From a virus: DNA of 24,980 nucleotides. The translations under genes and the position numbers were made by a program. Below are positions 3,861 through 10,936 of the stretch, one piece after another. The stretch is from positions 1 through 24,980 of IMG/VR virus record IMGVR_UViG_3300021379_000746; one strand, 5' to 3'. Position 1 is the first letter of the stretch, and the number at the start of each line of letters is the position of its first letter. The notes under the pieces are model-generated. The model ran no database searches and was not told where the DNA came from. It saw nothing but the letters and a program-made list of their open reading frames with translations.

Positions 3861-4066
3861 CTTTTATTCCCCCTATATTGCGGGTGGTCTTTCATTTGCC
3901 ATTCTCTAAGTTCTTTGGATGCCCAACGCCATTCAGCAGAAATTAAATCGTGCATATAAATCATATAATCTTCAAAATCATAATCCTCAAAAAACCCTTG
4001 AACTTGTGCTGATTGGTAATCTTTCCATAACTCTTCTTTTCTTTTATCTAATTCTTCTCTATTCAA
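3857..4066 (-). CDS. Hypothetical small acidic/aromatic protein, likely TTG start
   Basis: I do not recognise this 69-residue protein. It is helical, rich in Tyr, Trp and acidic residues (QGFFEDYDFEDYMIYMHD) and has a basic C-terminus. An ATG at 4072 directly abuts GGAGGA and would be badly spaced. TTG 4066 is seven bases after GGAGG and makes a TTGA overlap with the polymerase C-half stop, matching other junctions here, so TTG is preferred. It lies between the polymerase C-half and the Cas4/RecB-like nuclease. Confidence 0.65.
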   Translation of the reverse strand: MNREELDKRKEELWKDYQSAQVQGFFEDYDFEDYMIYMHDLISAEWRWASKELREWQMKDHPQYRGNKR

Positions 4067-4977
4067 AACCATTCCTCCAAACTTTTCTGTATTTTTCCTG
4101 TTCTAATTGTAGATAAATCCCAACCCATAGCCTCGTAAATAGGCTTTGCTTTATCTATTACTTGATTCGCATAATGTTGCCAATTAGGTGTATATTCTTT
4201 TAAATCCGAATATACTCTACCTGCTACAAATTCAACAGGTTTGTTTTCTTTTGTTATTGGATTAACATAACTCTCATTAGAGTTTTTAACTTTAAGATAA
4301 ATATAACTATCATCAAAGTTTATTTTTTTATTCTGCCAAGAAGCGACTACTCCTGCTACTCCCGAACCTATTGTTGGTCTTTTACCTTCAACAGTGGTAA
4401 AGGTATTAACAGGTTGACCGCACTTGTGTATTCCATCTTTGCCTTCACCTTCACCACAGACTTTAATATGTTGAATGTCTTTTAGATTATATTTTCTATT
4501 ACAATCAGGACACTTAACAGTAAATCTAAGTTTTCTTAGACGGGTGCGCTTAATTAACTTAGTAAAATCATAGTTACCATTTAAGACATTTAAATAGGTC
4601 TTATTCAAAAACGCATTTATTTCTTCAAGGGTATTTTGATTAGCCCACATTTTTAATACAGTAGTTTGTGTTTCCTTAGCGAGTTTTGTTTCGCTTACTC
4701 TTTTAGCAATAAAACCCGTCATTGTAAATTTAGGTTCATCTAACCACTGTCCGTCTTCCCAAGTAATCATACCCGCATTTCTGTTTTTTACAGTTCCGAC
4801 TCCTAGAGCCTTGTAGTATTTTTCAAATTCTAATACTACGGGATGCTCATTAAGTCCTAGAACATTAGGAAAATGTTCTCTAACACTTGCTTCTATTTCT
4901 TTGATAGCAGTTTGAGCCTTTTCAACCGAATCAATCTGAACATAGATTGAATCAGTGTGGCCATAAACTACTTTCAT
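4063..4977 (-). CDS. Family B DNA polymerase, C-terminal half (motif C, thumb, zinc ribbon, PIP box)
   Basis: The 304-residue protein begins MKVVYGHTDSIYV, that is, two residues before the strand carrying polymerase motif C (YGDTDS in most family B enzymes; here YGHTDS, keeping the second Asp, D9). FEKYYKALGV at 51-60 and KNRNAG at 64-69 match the post-motif C region (KKRYAG in relatives). Four cysteines at 156, 159, 174 and 186 form a zinc-ribbon-like insertion in the thumb region. The chain ends with QKSLEEWF (297-304), a textbook PCNA-interacting box. Together with the N-terminal half at 5614-7329 it would rebuild a complete polymerase of about 875 residues. It starts by an ATGA overlap with the coiled-coil gene. 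Confidence 0.93.
   Translation of the reverse strand: MKVVYGHTDSIYVQIDSVEKAQTAIKEIEASVREHFPNVLGLNEHPVVLEFEKYYKALGVGTVKNRNAGMITWEDGQWLDEPKFTMTGFIAKRVSETKLAKETQTTVLKMWANQNTLEEINAFLNKTYLNVLNGNYDFTKLIKRTRLRKLRFTVKCPDCNRKYNLKDIQHIKVCGEGEGKDGIHKCGQPVNTFTTVEGKRPTIGSGVAGVVASWQNKKINFDDSYIYLKVKNSNESYVNPITKENKPVEFVAGRVYSDLKEYTPNWQHYANQVIDKAKPIYEAMGWDLSTIRTGKIQKSLEEWF
4074..4078 (-). promoter_or_regulatory. Ribosome-binding site inside the polymerase PIP-box codons
   Basis: GGAGG is read from codons for Leu-Glu-Glu of the polymerase C-terminal PIP box and sits seven bases before TTG 4066. It decides a TTG start for the next gene. Confidence 0.6.
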
Positions 4978-5213
4978 ACTCCGCCCACCTTATCGGGTGC
5001 ATATATCAGATTGTTGAATGCTAATTCGGGATGCAACTTTTGTAGGTCGTTTTGTATTTCATGAATTGCTTTTGCTATCAAATATATGCTAGTTGATTCT
5101 TCGCTTTCTTCTTCTAAAAGCCTTATTCTATTTTCAAGACCTTTTATTCTTTCAGCCAATCCTTCGTTTTCTATTGTCAATCTTTTTATTTCTTCTTCTA
5201 ATTTTTCCGTCAC
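4974..5213 (-). CDS. Hypothetical coiled-coil protein in the polymerase gap
   Basis: The 79-residue protein has a strong coiled coil at about residues 1-40 (heptad Leu/Ile between Glu/Lys), then a mixed tail. The start is GTG, set by a GTGA overlap with the upstream membrane peptide and preceded by GGTGATAAT. Its stop overlaps the polymerase C-half start. No family is recognised. A role in holding the two polymerase halves together is possible but purely positional inference. Confidence 0.72.
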   Translation of the reverse strand: MTEKLEEEIKRLTIENEGLAERIKGLENRIRLLEEESEESTSIYLIAKAIHEIQNDLQKLHPELAFNNLIYAPDKVGGV

Positions 5214-5341
5214 ATTATCACCGTCACTATTGTTAAAATGGTTGCTATGTTCACGATATTTACCATCATTAATATCTTATTTGATTTTGCTATCATAGCC
5301 AGCAATTCCTCTAATAATTCATTTGTCTTGTCCATCATCAT
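5210..5341 (-). CDS. Tiny single-pass membrane protein
   Basis: The frame gives 43 residues: a short polar N-terminus (MMMDKTNELLEELL) and a hydrophobic C-terminal helix of about 20 residues (MVNIVNIATILTIVTVIM). Upstream is GGTGTGAATAAAA. It overlaps the 57-residue gene by 23 bases and the coiled-coil gene by GTGA. There are three consecutive ATGs, so the exact start is uncertain. Function unknown. Confidence 0.55.
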   Translation of the reverse strand: MMMDKTNELLEELLAMIAKSNKILMMVNIVNIATILTIVTVIM

Positions 5342-5492
5342 TTTTATTCACACCCTGTTCAATAGATATAATAATGGCATGACGCTTTAAATTATTCATC
5401 ATTTGAAATATCTCTTTTACTTCTTGTAAAGTAATATCCCAAGTTTCTTCTGTGTCATATGACACCTTAATTGTTACATATTTTGTTTTCAT
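5319..5492 (-). CDS. Hypothetical 57-residue protein
   Basis: It begins MKTKYVTIKVSYDTEETWD: two probable strands, then a helix (LQEVKEIFQMMNNLKR) and a third strand (HAIIISIE). This is a compact alpha/beta small protein of unknown function. GGAGAG lies six bases before the ATG, and the start overlaps the upstream zinc-ribbon stop as ATGA. Confidence 0.65.
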   Translation of the reverse strand: MKTKYVTIKVSYDTEETWDITLQEVKEIFQMMNNLKRHAIIISIEQGVNKNDDGQDK

Positions 5493-5617
5493 TCAAATCT
5501 CTCCACATGGTTACAATTACTACATTTTAATAGGCCTTTATCTCTTGACATACCATTAGGTCTTGCTCTAAAACTTTTCATTTTTAGTTCTCCTTGTTTG
5601 CATACAGGACATTTCAT
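5489..5617 (-). CDS. Small zinc-ribbon protein in the polymerase gap
   Basis: The 42-residue protein has CPVC at 3-6 and CSNC near 32-35, a minimal two-knuckle zinc ribbon with a basic loop (KSFRARPNG). Its ATG overlaps the polymerase N-half stop as ATGA, so it is translationally coupled to the polymerase. Nucleic-acid or protein binding is likely; the exact role is unknown. Confidence 0.72.
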   Translation of the reverse strand: MKCPVCKQGELKMKSFRARPNGMSRDKGLLKCSNCNHVERFE

Positions 5618-7329
5618 ATTTCCATCTCCTTTGCTTTAAAAGCCGCTAATCTAATTGCTTCTCTTGCGCTTGCGGTAATAGATGAGGCTAAAGTAGAATC
5701 AGCCCACGCAAAGCCTGTAAATCCAAGAACCCCATAGAAAGATGCAGATAGCCTCTTTACTGCCATTTGGTTATTATACCACTTTTGATATTCACCGTTT
5801 GGTTTTCCTCTTGCTTCTTTCATTCTTGCTTTGTATTCGTTTCTTAGTTCTTTTAGTTCTAAAACTGCTCTCGGTAAAAGACCTAATTTATCTGTTTTAA
5901 AATAAACCATTTCTTTTTCTTTTACTTCACTGAAATCTCTTGGAGTAAGAATATTAACTCCAAATTCAGTCGGCACATCTGAAATAGTTTCAAAAGAAAT
6001 ATTACGAGCAATCATCATTGAAGGATATAGACCTGCAAAATCAAATGCGGCCACATTAAGATGTAGGCCGTTTGTATCTTCGCTTAACGGGTCATAAATC
6101 ATAGCCCCTTCGTATGGTTTCTTTTTCTCATCTCTATTTCCTGTTTTGGCTTTCCACCAAGCATTTCTCATAAAGTAAATGCTACCCATGTGAGAAGCAA
6201 AGAAACAAGCATCAAATGGTGCTTTCAATAGTCTTTGTAATGCTAAGATAGCATCACTACAATAATTAGATTCATCTATTTCTACCATTAGTTGAACATC
6301 TATCAAAGCATATTTAAGATATGTTTCTGTATCTTCTAACCACGCTCTACGGTAGAACTCGTTAGGGTCAGGAAACTTTTCTGAAACTAATTTCTTTTTA
6401 CCTAATACTTCTTCTGCTACATAATCTAACGCCAATGATGGTAATGTTCCTCTTTGTGAATCATTCCATTGTCTTTCAAACGCCATATCTAAATTTAGAA
6501 CAATACGGCCAGCAATCGGTTGTTCTATTTGACCGAATCCATTTTCAGCATATTTAAATCTATTATTACTAATACCTTTAACTGAACCAATTGGAGATAT
6601 AATCGTAGGGTCTAAACCATTGACACAAGCCCTATCTAATAACTTAGGAATATCGGCAAAATTACCAAACCAAGCAATTAGCATATCGGGGTCTTTTACA
6701 AGCATTGTTCTCATAAAATTCTCAATCATATCTTTTTCGCTATTGAAAATTCTTAGGCTTGAATCCGTTCTTCTTTTTTTCTTGCCAATCATTTTCTCTT
6801 GTGCTAAAACTAATCTATGATATGGGCGACCAATTGTGCCTTCTTTTCCTTTAGGCTTTTTATCTTTAGGAAACCACACCCATTGATAATAGTCCTCATC
6901 ATAATTATCATACATTACGATAGTAGTAATACAATCGTGATATTCACCGCCTTGTTGCCATTCCATATCCCAATACCATTTACGCATTTCATACTCCGGC
7001 ATTTCATCAATACAATCTACTGCATATCTAAAATGATAAGGAACATCTGCTTCATATGTTTTTGAAAATTGGTCTTTCACCTTTTTAATATCTTCATGTC
7101 TTTCAACATAGACTTTCTTTAGAGGTTCACCATCAATATTAACCCAATTACCCTTTTCATACTCAAAATCTCTTATCAAGTATTTACTTGGCTTGTATGT
7201 TTTTCTTTCTTTTTCTGAATCTAAAACAAAAAAATAAGGTCTAAAAGGCACTAATTCAAACCGCTTTACTTTATTTTCTCTCCATGATTTGTATATTGTT
7301 TTACCATCATCTAATTTACTTATTATCAT
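5614..7329 (-). CDS. Family B DNA polymerase, N-terminal half (exonuclease, motifs A and B)
   Basis: The 571-residue protein carries the 3'-5' exonuclease and most of the palm. Exo I is YWDMEW (D121, E123). Exo II is WFGNFADIP (N223, D226), one residue tighter than the usual spacing. Exo III is YALID (Y340, D344). Motif A is AAFDFAGLYPSM (D430), and motif B is VKRLSASFYG (K525-G533). The chain stops right after the helix that precedes motif C (REAIRLAAFKAKEMEI); motif C is at the start of the gene at 4063-4977. GAGG lies seven bases before the ATG. The clamp gene is immediately upstream. Proofreading residues look intact, so an active two-subunit replicase is expected. Confidence 0.95.
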   Translation of the reverse strand: MIISKLDDGKTIYKSWRENKVKRFELVPFRPYFFVLDSEKERKTYKPSKYLIRDFEYEKGNWVNIDGEPLKKVYVERHEDIKKVKDQFSKTYEADVPYHFRYAVDCIDEMPEYEMRKWYWDMEWQQGGEYHDCITTIVMYDNYDEDYYQWVWFPKDKKPKGKEGTIGRPYHRLVLAQEKMIGKKKRRTDSSLRIFNSEKDMIENFMRTMLVKDPDMLIAWFGNFADIPKLLDRACVNGLDPTIISPIGSVKGISNNRFKYAENGFGQIEQPIAGRIVLNLDMAFERQWNDSQRGTLPSLALDYVAEEVLGKKKLVSEKFPDPNEFYRRAWLEDTETYLKYALIDVQLMVEIDESNYCSDAILALQRLLKAPFDACFFASHMGSIYFMRNAWWKAKTGNRDEKKKPYEGAMIYDPLSEDTNGLHLNVAAFDFAGLYPSMMIARNISFETISDVPTEFGVNILTPRDFSEVKEKEMVYFKTDKLGLLPRAVLELKELRNEYKARMKEARGKPNGEYQKWYNNQMAVKRLSASFYGVLGFTGFAWADSTLASSITASAREAIRLAAFKAKEMEI

Positions 7330-7348: not shown

Positions 7349-8116
7349 TTAATTATTAACCGCAGGTGCTTTTAACATCAATCTATCATTAGATATTATG
7401 ATTACAGGAAATTCATCTTTTACATAAAAATTCAATAATTGTCCTTTATCGAAAAAGGAATATAACGGGCTTGAAAACTCAAGCGTAGCGGGTTCCCCTA
7501 AGTGGAACGCAGGAGTTAAAATTACACTAAACTTAGAAGAGGTATTACTACCACTTGTAAAGTGAACTAAATTATCTTTGTAATCTAATTTGTATATTCC
7601 TGTTTTAGCCAACTCACATGATTTAATAGTATCAGCAAACTGTTCTTGTGATAAAGTAAAAGCCCCCTCAAGAGGAATTTTATTGAACGCAAAAAGAGTT
7701 TCGGGAACTGTTTCATAGTTCATGTGTTTTATCATAGTTCTCATTCTTGTAATAGCATCAAAGCCACTATGTATTGCTACTTTTGGTATCTTTGCACCTT
7801 TGCCTTCTACTGTAATATTAATAGAAGAATCGTCAACTGAAAACTGAACTGTATCGGTAAATGACTTTAGAAACGGTATAATTTCCTTAGCATCACCAAT
7901 AAAATTACCATTGGATTCTCCCACTACTTCTAAATTAAGACAACAGATAATAGTAGCATCACCATTCCACAATTTTAGGTTGTTTTCCTCTAATTCAGCC
8001 CAAAACAATGAGCCAATAGTAGAAGAAGAAAAGCCATTTGAAGATAGGTGCTTACCCTTTACTTGTATCTTTTCTAAAGCATTTTGCATTTCTTTACTGT
8101 CTACATTGAACTTCAT
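7349..8116 (-). CDS. pcn: Sliding clamp (PCNA-like)
   Basis: The 255-residue protein has the usual PCNA length. It opens MKFNVDSKEMQNALEKI, a clamp-like first helix. A FIGDAKEIIPFLKSF segment and the C-terminal strand pair FPVIIISNDRLMLKAP are typical of clamp domains. Overall similarity to cellular PCNA is low by eye, so the call rests on fold pattern, length and its place next to the polymerase. The PIP box at the end of the polymerase C-half shows that a PCNA-type partner is expected. The start is ATG with GGTGA upstream and an ATGA overlap with the preceding gene. Confidence 0.8.
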   Translation of the reverse strand: MKFNVDSKEMQNALEKIQVKGKHLSSNGFSSSTIGSLFWAELEENNLKLWNGDATIICCLNLEVVGESNGNFIGDAKEIIPFLKSFTDTVQFSVDDSSINITVEGKGAKIPKVAIHSGFDAITRMRTMIKHMNYETVPETLFAFNKIPLEGAFTLSQEQFADTIKSCELAKTGIYKLDYKDNLVHFTSGSNTSSKFSVILTPAFHLGEPATLEFSSPLYSFFDKGQLLNFYVKDEFPVIIISNDRLMLKAPAVNN

Positions 8117-9724: not shown

Positions 9725-10936
9725 TCAAAACCAATCAAAGTTTTCCTCCATTGGTTGTGAAATTTCTACTGCTGAACCTTTTCTAAAGGTGCATAGAAGT
9801 CCTGAAACATTGATAGTCACAGGCTCTACTCCTTCATCAGTAGTTCTTTGACTTGTTCTACCTACTACAATTACTGTTGAACCAATTCCGAAATCAAGTG
9901 TTAGATGTTCGGGAATCCAACAAGTAGTTGTTCCGGAGTCATTTTCATAATCTAACTCCGCATTCAAATCAGTAATATTGATAATTCTATTACCGTTTGA
10001 AGTAGGGGTCATGTTCATATTACAAACTGTTCCATCTGTAATAATGTATCTTTCTTTAGAAGCCTCTCCTTGTCTTTGAAGATGTTCCCTGTCTAAATTA
10101 ACTAAAGGAACTAACTTGTTAGCAAAATCATTCTGCAAACAAGATTCAAAATCAAAGTTAGTCATATCTCTATACAGTTCACTTTCGGGATTCATGTCTG
10201 TATTAAGCGTTAGACTGTTCAAGGTCAAATCTTTGGCCCCGTAAATATCAGTTCCATTTGAACCTGCTACACATAAGAAATGGACGAACTCAAATGTATT
10301 CGGTGCAAAGTCTACACCGGCTTGATTCTTGTAGGAAAAGAAATATGGTTTCATATCTCCAATTCCTAACGAACCGTAAAAAATACCTGTTCTTCTCATT
10401 TGTTCTTTTGGTAGTGGTCTACCATAGTTTGCATTTTTACCGCCATTCATATAGGTAGCGGTATTATCTAAAGGAATGTAGATTCTACCATCTTCAAGTG
10501 TTTCAGCACCTTCCGGTAGTTCGTTTCTAACTGCTTCTCTAAATTCCCCATTATGGTATCGGGTAATCTTCCAACCGTTTGTTGTTTCAACGGCTTGGGC
10601 TACTATTCCTGTTTCAAGAGCCATTTCTGAATCTCTTAGAAATTCTTCTCTTGCTCTTGCTCTATTCCAACTCATCATATCTCTTGGTGCATCTAATGAA
10701 ACAAAGAAACCAAACGCATTTTTGTAATAAGAATCATTGTTATTACTATTATCCGATTGGTTGCTTCTTCTTGCGTTTGCTACAAAGTTTCTCCAAAGGG
10801 CTTTTGCCGTTGGGTCTGAAACTTGTAGCGAGTTTTCGGAACATATGCCCTCAAACTTCGCAACTGCTTCATCAACGCTCATGTTGATATATTGTGCGCT
10901 CTTTTCAATTTCTGCTCTAATTTCTTCCGGTATCAT
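9725..10936 (-). CDS. Candidate RPA/SSB-like single-stranded DNA-binding protein
   Basis: The 403-residue protein has an N-terminal helical domain (1-60), a Ser/Asn linker (57-68), a central domain, and a C-terminal beta-rich region. The latter (about 290-390: YIITDGTVCNMNM, RIINITDLNAEL, STVIVVGRTSQ, VTINVSGLLC) reads like an OB-fold. The chain ends MEENFDWF, an acidic-aromatic tail like those used by bacterial SSB and T7 gp2.5 to contact partner proteins. It lies next to the clamp loader and near the Sak4-like ATPase, a known SSB partner family. The OB-fold is judged by eye; a structural or nucleoid role cannot be excluded. GGTGA precedes the ATG. Confidence 0.58.
   Translation of the reverse strand: MIPEEIRAEIEKSAQYINMSVDEAVAKFEGICSENSLQVSDPTAKALWRNFVANARRSNQSDNSNNNDSYYKNAFGFFVSLDAPRDMMSWNRARAREEFLRDSEMALETGIVAQAVETTNGWKITRYHNGEFREAVRNELPEGAETLEDGRIYIPLDNTATYMNGGKNANYGRPLPKEQMRRTGIFYGSLGIGDMKPYFFSYKNQAGVDFAPNTFEFVHFLCVAGSNGTDIYGAKDLTLNSLTLNTDMNPESELYRDMTNFDFESCLQNDFANKLVPLVNLDREHLQRQGEASKERYIITDGTVCNMNMTPTSNGNRIINITDLNAELDYENDSGTTTCWIPEHLTLDFGIGSTVIVVGRTSQRTTDEGVEPVTINVSGLLCTFRKGSAVEISQPMEENFDWF

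What the first reader, a model, noticed from the sequence alone, without database searches (positions are those of the whole stretch)
4063..7329. Family B polymerase split just before motif C, with four tiny genes in the gap
The N-half ends after motif B (REAIRLAAFKAKEMEI) and the C-half begins MKVVYGHTDSIYV, so the break falls in the loop right before the catalytic strand with nothing apparently lost. Between them lie a zinc ribbon, a 57-residue protein, a membrane peptide and a coiled-coil protein, all coupled by 4-base overlaps or short overlaps. Each half has its own start. A split before the same motif is known in Methanothermobacter PolB; this may be independent. The gap proteins could be assembly factors or remnants of an insertion.
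Basis: partly seen in the sequence, partly recalled or inferred. Interest (0 to 1): 0.82.

Follow-up and report, generated by a model that had tools for sequence, protein, structure and literature searches.

The report
Split replicase of marine archaeal viruses
The DNA-copying enzyme of this magrovirus-like virus is encoded as two separate genes cut at one fixed point in its active-site region; the cut happened once in the ancestor of a large virus group, and the gap then became a landing place for mobile endonucleases and tiny genes.

Summary
A family B DNA polymerase is split into a 571-aa N-half (through motif B) and a 304-aa C-half (starting MKVVYGHTDS), with four small, overlapping ORFs between them.

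It is not an assembly break. In IMG/VR, 130 unique related loci are split at the same residue. Their nearest relatives (36 unique loci) carry one intact polymerase at the same place in the same replication module. A tree puts all split forms in one clade (100/100), so there was one ancient split, with nothing lost: 13-15 residues span the junction versus 14 in the fused form.

Both halves are under strong purifying selection and keep the catalytic motifs and a clamp-binding-like C-terminus. The best reading is an active two-chain polymerase; this is inferred, not shown.

The gap proteins are not obligatory. The 57-aa and membrane proteins are real, but absent from the gap in deeper lineages. 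One HNH-endonuclease family sits exactly at the N-half stop codon, with an occupied and an empty site.

Bonus: every polymerase of this group, fused or split, has HTD for the canonical DTD in motif C.

Split PolBs were already known, and a 2023 ICTV map labels PolB-NTD/CTD in one magrovirus.

The parts
5614..7329 (-). PolB N-half (571 aa): exonuclease domain, motif A (DFAGLYP), fingers and motif B
   Evidence: conserved and split in 130 unique loci; dN/dS 0.15
5489..5617 (-). 42-aa zinc-ribbon ORF (f3), ATGA overlap with the N-half stop; lineage-variable
   Evidence: 27 of 80 gaps; dN/dS 0.63; only sub-threshold Pfam zinc-ribbon hits
5319..5492 (-). 57-aa protein (f0b), conserved in the crown of the split clade
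   Evidence: 79 of 80 gaps by HMM; dN/dS 0.155; homologue just upstream of the fused PolB in L256
5210..5341 (-). 43-aa protein (f1) with a C-terminal hydrophobic stretch, probable tail-anchored membrane protein
   Evidence: 79 of 80 gaps; dN/dS 0.137; found outside the gap in L273 and kin and in fused L256
4974..5213 (-). 79-aa coiled-coil ORF (f2), GTG start, ATGA overlap with the C-half start
   Evidence: 77 of 80 gaps by single linkage, 40 by phmmer; dN/dS 0.64
4063..4977 (-). PolB C-half (304 aa): motif C strand, rest of palm, thumb
   Evidence: 130 unique split loci; dN/dS 0.16; Foldseek best hits archaeal PolB
4948..4965 (-). Motif C YGHTDS: His in place of the first Asp
   Evidence: Invariant His in 166/166 unique fused-or-split relatives
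4420..4512 (-). Four-cysteine putative zinc site inserted in the thumb (C156, C159, C174, C186)
   Evidence: All four Cys invariant in 13 diverse sequences
4066..4089 (-). PIP-box-like C-terminus QKSLEEWF (putative clamp contact)
   Evidence: Similar tail in 155/166 unique relatives

Best explanation
A two-chain replicative family B DNA polymerase of a magrovirus-like (Poseidoniales virus) lineage. In the common ancestor of the split clade the single gene was cut once in the loop between the motif B helix and the motif C hairpin: a stop codon after the helix, and a start codon replacing the residue four positions before YxHTDS. Nothing was lost. Both halves come from one operon, coupled by ATGA overlaps through small ORFs, and are inferred to fold together, the palm being completed by the C-half (second Asp of HTD) against motif A of the N-half, with the C-half thumb and PIP-box-like tail contacting a clamp. 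The junction then became a tolerated insertion site: one HNH-endonuclease family repeatedly occupies the exact N-half stop codon, and short Cys-rich ORFs and later, in the crown of the clade, the 57-aa, membrane and coiled-coil genes accumulated there. Shown: the split, its fixed position, single origin, purifying selection, the present/absent HNH gene, the variable gap. Inferred: assembly and activity. Less certain: that an HNH invasion caused the original cut (about 0.4).
For: 130 unique split loci, 0 fused inside the split clade; one clade with 100/100 support, fused-HTD sister 95/93, same in a larger tree; spacing 14 in fused versus 13-15 summed in split; dN/dS 0.148 and 0.160; motif A 166/166, motif B 164/166, exo I 163/166, PIP-like tail 155/166; C-half fold matches archaeal PolB, and its palm is uncertain alone while the thumb is confident; occupied versus empty HNH site L275/L273; the HNH family lies only at this junction in magrovirus contigs. 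Precedent: the split gp43A/B of Aeromonas phage 25 co-purify and are active (PMC2988022).
Against: No complex prediction or biochemistry could be run. The N-half model was poor, and the low palm confidence of the C-half could also come from a shallow alignment. The first Asp of motif C is missing, which lowers activity in several polymerases when mutated (PMC8764526). Gap ORFs other than HNH exist in the deepest lineages, so an HNH origin of the cut is not proven.
Confidence: 0.82

Rival explanations
1. Assembly or sequencing artefact, or a polymerase broken in this one virus.
For: The window is a fragment record of 24,980 bases.
Against: The same break in 130 unique loci, several on 90-96 kb contigs; both halves have dN/dS about 0.15 and intact motifs.
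Confidence: 0.01
2. The gap is an intron or a (split) intein: the halves are joined at RNA or protein level into one chain.
For: Polymerase genes are common hosts of introns and inteins; the Methanobacteriales split is attributed to erratic intein excision (PMC4104785); an HNH gene sits in some gaps.
Against: No Rfam intron in the window or in L273, L266, L275, L286; no intein-like extension on either half; N-half stop and C-half ATG lie exactly at the junction and the gap is tiled by overlapping ORFs.
Confidence: 0.05
3. The gap genes are dedicated assembly or tethering subunits of the split polymerase, and the split is kept because of them.
For: f0b and f1 are strongly conserved and nearly always in the gap in the main clade; small two-CxxC ORFs are enriched right after the N-half, 28/67 versus 25/257 in the control, not corrected for relatedness.
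Against: Gaps of deep split lineages lack the trio; f1 lies elsewhere in those genomes and f0b/f1 occur in a fused genome; the junction zinc ribbons of the window and L273 show no detectable similarity.
Confidence: 0.1
4. The polymerase is degenerate (first Asp of motif C lost, gene broken) and another enzyme replicates the genome.
For: His for Asp in motif C throughout.
Against: Strong purifying selection on both halves; all other motifs kept; the fused sisters also have His; Dpo2 without this Asp is active (PMC8764526).
Confidence: 0.05

Closest known systems
PolB of magroviruses: Aoguangviridae virus YSH_150918 (ICTV profile, PMC10768690)
   Same: Magrovirus replication module; the published map legend names PolB-NTD/CTD, so the two parts are already labelled
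   Different: The split, its position, origin and gap are not discussed in the text that could be read; the record ON649702 is not held, so its junction was not compared
Split PolB of Methanobacteriales (Kelman et al. 1999, cited in PMC4104785)
   Same: A family B polymerase encoded as two genes
   Different: Cellular PolB3, attributed to erratic intein excision; its break position was not tested here; the nearest relatives of the viral form are fused, so origins are separate
gp43A/gp43B of Aeromonas phages 25 and 44RR
   Same: Viral PolB in two genes with a homing endonuclease between them in phage 25; the parts co-purify and are active (PMC2988022)
   Different: Break is before motif B in the fingers, and a group I intron lies in 43B; bacterial T4-like phages
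Nanoarchaeum equitans split PolB with trans-splicing intein (PMC4104785)
   Same: PolB in two genes
   Different: Parts are non-adjacent and rejoined by a split intein; no intein seen here
Fused PolB of tailed haloviruses (HCTV-1, HRTV-25, HRTV-27, VOLN27B)
   Same: Homologous enzyme in archaeal tailed viruses
   Different: Single chain of 811-908 aa with canonical YGDTDS
Archaeal PolB2 (Sulfolobus Dpo2)
   Same: Lacks the first motif C aspartate and is nevertheless active (PMC8764526)
   Different: Translesion enzyme without exonuclease; here a probable replicase with exonuclease motifs and His at that position

Membership tests
Family B DNA polymerase | DNA_pol_B and exonuclease profiles | tested here: met
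   PF00136 in both halves consecutively, PF03104 in the N-half, all above cut-off
Family B DNA polymerase | Motif A Asp, motif B Lys and second Asp of motif C | tested here: met
   Motif A 166/166, motif B 164/166, HTDS in all
Family B DNA polymerase | First Asp of motif C (DTD) | tested here: not met
   His in all 166 unique loci, fused or split; not fatal, as Dpo2 is active without it
Two-subunit (split) PolB | Two complementary ORFs that together cover one polymerase | tested here: met
Two-subunit (split) PolB | Halves associate into an active enzyme | not testable with these tools
   No complex prediction of two chains was available; precedent only
Intein-containing or trans-spliced PolB | Intein sequence attached to the halves | tested here: not met
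   Both halves stop and start exactly at the junction; no extension in 130 loci; no dedicated intein HMM beyond Pfam was run
Intron-interrupted PolB | Group I/II intron in the gap | tested here: not met
   Rfam search of the window region and four relatives
Order Magrovirales / magrovirus | Archaeal-type replication module with chaperonin and TFB genes | tested here: met
   RFC-S-like AAA, Cpn60, ERCC4, TFIIB zinc ribbon, matching the gene list in PMC10768690; clamp assignment not confirmed by Pfam or PHROGs
HNH homing endonuclease at the junction (in relatives) | HNH domain, fixed site, occupied and empty alleles | tested here: met
   Pfam/PHROGs HNH matches; L275 versus L273; 17 magrovirus loci, all at this site
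HNH homing endonuclease at the junction (in relatives) | Cleaves the empty site and is copied into it | not testable with these tools
   Needs biochemistry

The most novel reading that the evidence does not exclude
The small proteins encoded at the junction (recurrent zinc ribbons and, in the crown clade, the 57-aa and membrane-anchor proteins) are accessory subunits that help assemble the two-chain polymerase or tether it to the membrane, replacing one another over time at a fixed operon position.
Probability: 0.1. Interest if true: 0.75.

Novelty: new variant of a known kind. Interest (0 to 1): 0.52.

Why it matters
It traces a polymerase split to one event, with the unsplit sister lineage at hand, and shows a replicase that appears to have worked in two chains through a long diversification. 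This makes it possible to test how an active site tolerates a break next to its catalytic strand, and whether a nuclease invasion made the break. The clade-wide Asp-to-His change in motif C, shared with the fused sisters, is a second, independent puzzle about which residue is dispensable in a replicative polymerase.

Tried and rejected
Synonymous divergence of f0b/f1 looked far lower than that of the polymerase halves in a few window pairs; a codon profile over 2272 pairs showed no clear anomaly, so nucleic-acid constraint or a recently exchanged cassette was dropped. Rfam for introns: none (one sub-threshold chance hit). Cellular copies: none found in genome contigs with the N-half. The C-half gave no tblastn hit in annotated phages. 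The N-half AlphaFold model was too poor to use. ON649702 and OR863078 are not in the collections. L329 first seemed to have no gap ORF in an ATG-only gene list; reading its gap sequence shows a 33-aa Cys-rich ORF with a GTG start, so a gap without any gene is not claimed.

Full report
1. Observation. The window encodes, on the minus strand, a family B polymerase in two ORFs: 5614-7329 (571 aa) and 4063-4977 (304 aa). Between them lie four ORFs of 42, 57, 43 and 79 aa that overlap each other and the two halves by 4 to 23 nt. Pfam DNA_pol_B is matched consecutively by the two halves, and the exonuclease domain lies in the N-half. The record is a 24,980-base viral fragment with an RFC-S-like AAA protein, Cpn60, an ERCC4 nuclease and a TFIIB-type zinc ribbon, as in magroviruses.

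2. Breadth. Scans of IMG/VR returned hundreds of relatives. After removing duplicates, 130 unique loci are split and 36 are fused with HTD; 34 further loci, haloviruses and others, are fused with YGDTDS. Three more loci (L369, L377, L381), first counted as N-half only, have a C-half downstream with a non-ATG start. All scored C-halves have exactly four residues before YxHTDS. The helix-to-motif-C spacing is 14 residues in all 36 fused sequences; adding the two halves gives 13-15 in 126 of 130 split loci and 17-19 in the other four.

3. Phylogeny. With the two halves placed end to end for tree building only, the split forms are one side of a branch (100/100; 100% of 200 bootstrap trees), the fused-HTD forms are sister (95/93), and DTD polymerases are outside (100/100). 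A larger tree with deeper lineages agrees (split 100, fused-HTD 98, SH-aLRT only). Outgroup polymerases sit on long branches, so their internal order is unsure. The inferred order of change is DTD to HTD first, then the split.

4. Function. dN/dS is 0.15 (N-half) and 0.16 (C-half). Motif A is kept in 166/166, motif B in 164/166 and exo I in 163/166; 155/166 end in a PIP-box-like tail. The C-half aligns by sequence with Pol delta and by fold with archaeal PolB. Its modelled palm is uncertain alone while the thumb is confident, as expected if the palm needs the N-half, although a shallow alignment could give the same. Activity of a split PolB has precedent in Aeromonas phage 25 (PMC2988022).

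5. The gap. In 80 unique gaps of the main clade, f0b and f1 occur in 79 each by HMM, and f2-like coiled coils in 77 by single linkage. f0b and f1 are under strong purifying selection, whereas f2 and the zinc ribbon evolve fast. But the trio belongs to the crown: none of it is in the gaps of the 16 YAHTDS loci or of most other deep lineages. f1 lies near the primase-like gene in L273 and kin, and near RFC-S in fused L256; f0b abuts the fused PolB in L256. These are replication-neighbourhood genes that changed place, not obligate partners of the split. The first gap ORF is positionally coupled to the N-half stop in 117 of 130 loci, 92 of them by the 4-nt overlap.

6. The mobile element. L273 and L275/L276 are near-identical around the junction except that L275/L276 carry an HNH-type ORF (167 aa in L275) exactly at the N-half stop codon. 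The same family (E down to 3e-14) occupies the same position in seven main-clade gaps. A whole-collection scan found it in magrovirus contigs only there, 17 loci. A T5orf172 (GIY-YIG-like) ORF takes the same slot in L009. HNH-type ORFs also follow the intact PolB in L256 and, more weakly scored, L439. The split could have begun with such an insertion, or the nuclease may exploit a site that the split made harmless; the data do not decide.

7. Motif C. His replaces the first Asp in every one of the 166 unique polymerases, fused or split. Sulfolobus Dpo2 also lacks that Asp and is active. No paper in the open library contains 'YGHTDS', which does not exclude a description elsewhere. The C-half search used a pattern that includes the His, but the N-half and fused searches did not.

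8. Known or new. Split PolBs are a known kind, and the ICTV map of one magrovirus labels the two parts. What is added here is the clade-wide fixed junction, the single origin with a fused sister, the occupied/empty HNH site, the late arrival of the gap trio, and the HTD motif. The original magrovirus papers (Philosof 2017, Zhou 2023) could not be read and may mention the split. The claim that Methanothermobacter breaks at the same motif was not tested.

Noticed in passing
4948-4965 (motif C of the C-half): Motif C reads YGHTDS; the His in place of the first Asp is invariant in 166 unique fused or split relatives, so it predates the split.
   Followed up: partly
first gap ORF in split loci (window 5489-5617): Small two-CxxC ORFs are enriched directly after the N-half (28/67 unique versus 25/257 control ORFs), though not corrected for relatedness; the window and L273 examples show no similarity.
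   Followed up: partly
L331:4993-5124: 43-aa gap ORF resembling the start of a DNA methyltransferase (PHROG E 0.03), perhaps a remnant of an inserted gene.
   Followed up: partly
L019/L127 and L183 (contig 3300021958_000021, 184,733 bases): One contig carries two different split PolB loci; its length is about twice a magrovirus genome, so it may be a chimeric assembly.
   Followed up: no
7349-8116: ORF in the position where magrovirus maps show the sliding clamp, but it matches no Pfam or PHROG family.
   Followed up: partly
9725-10936: 403-aa ORF conserved in the same place in fused and split relatives with no Pfam or PHROG match; possibly a single-strand DNA binding protein.
   Followed up: no
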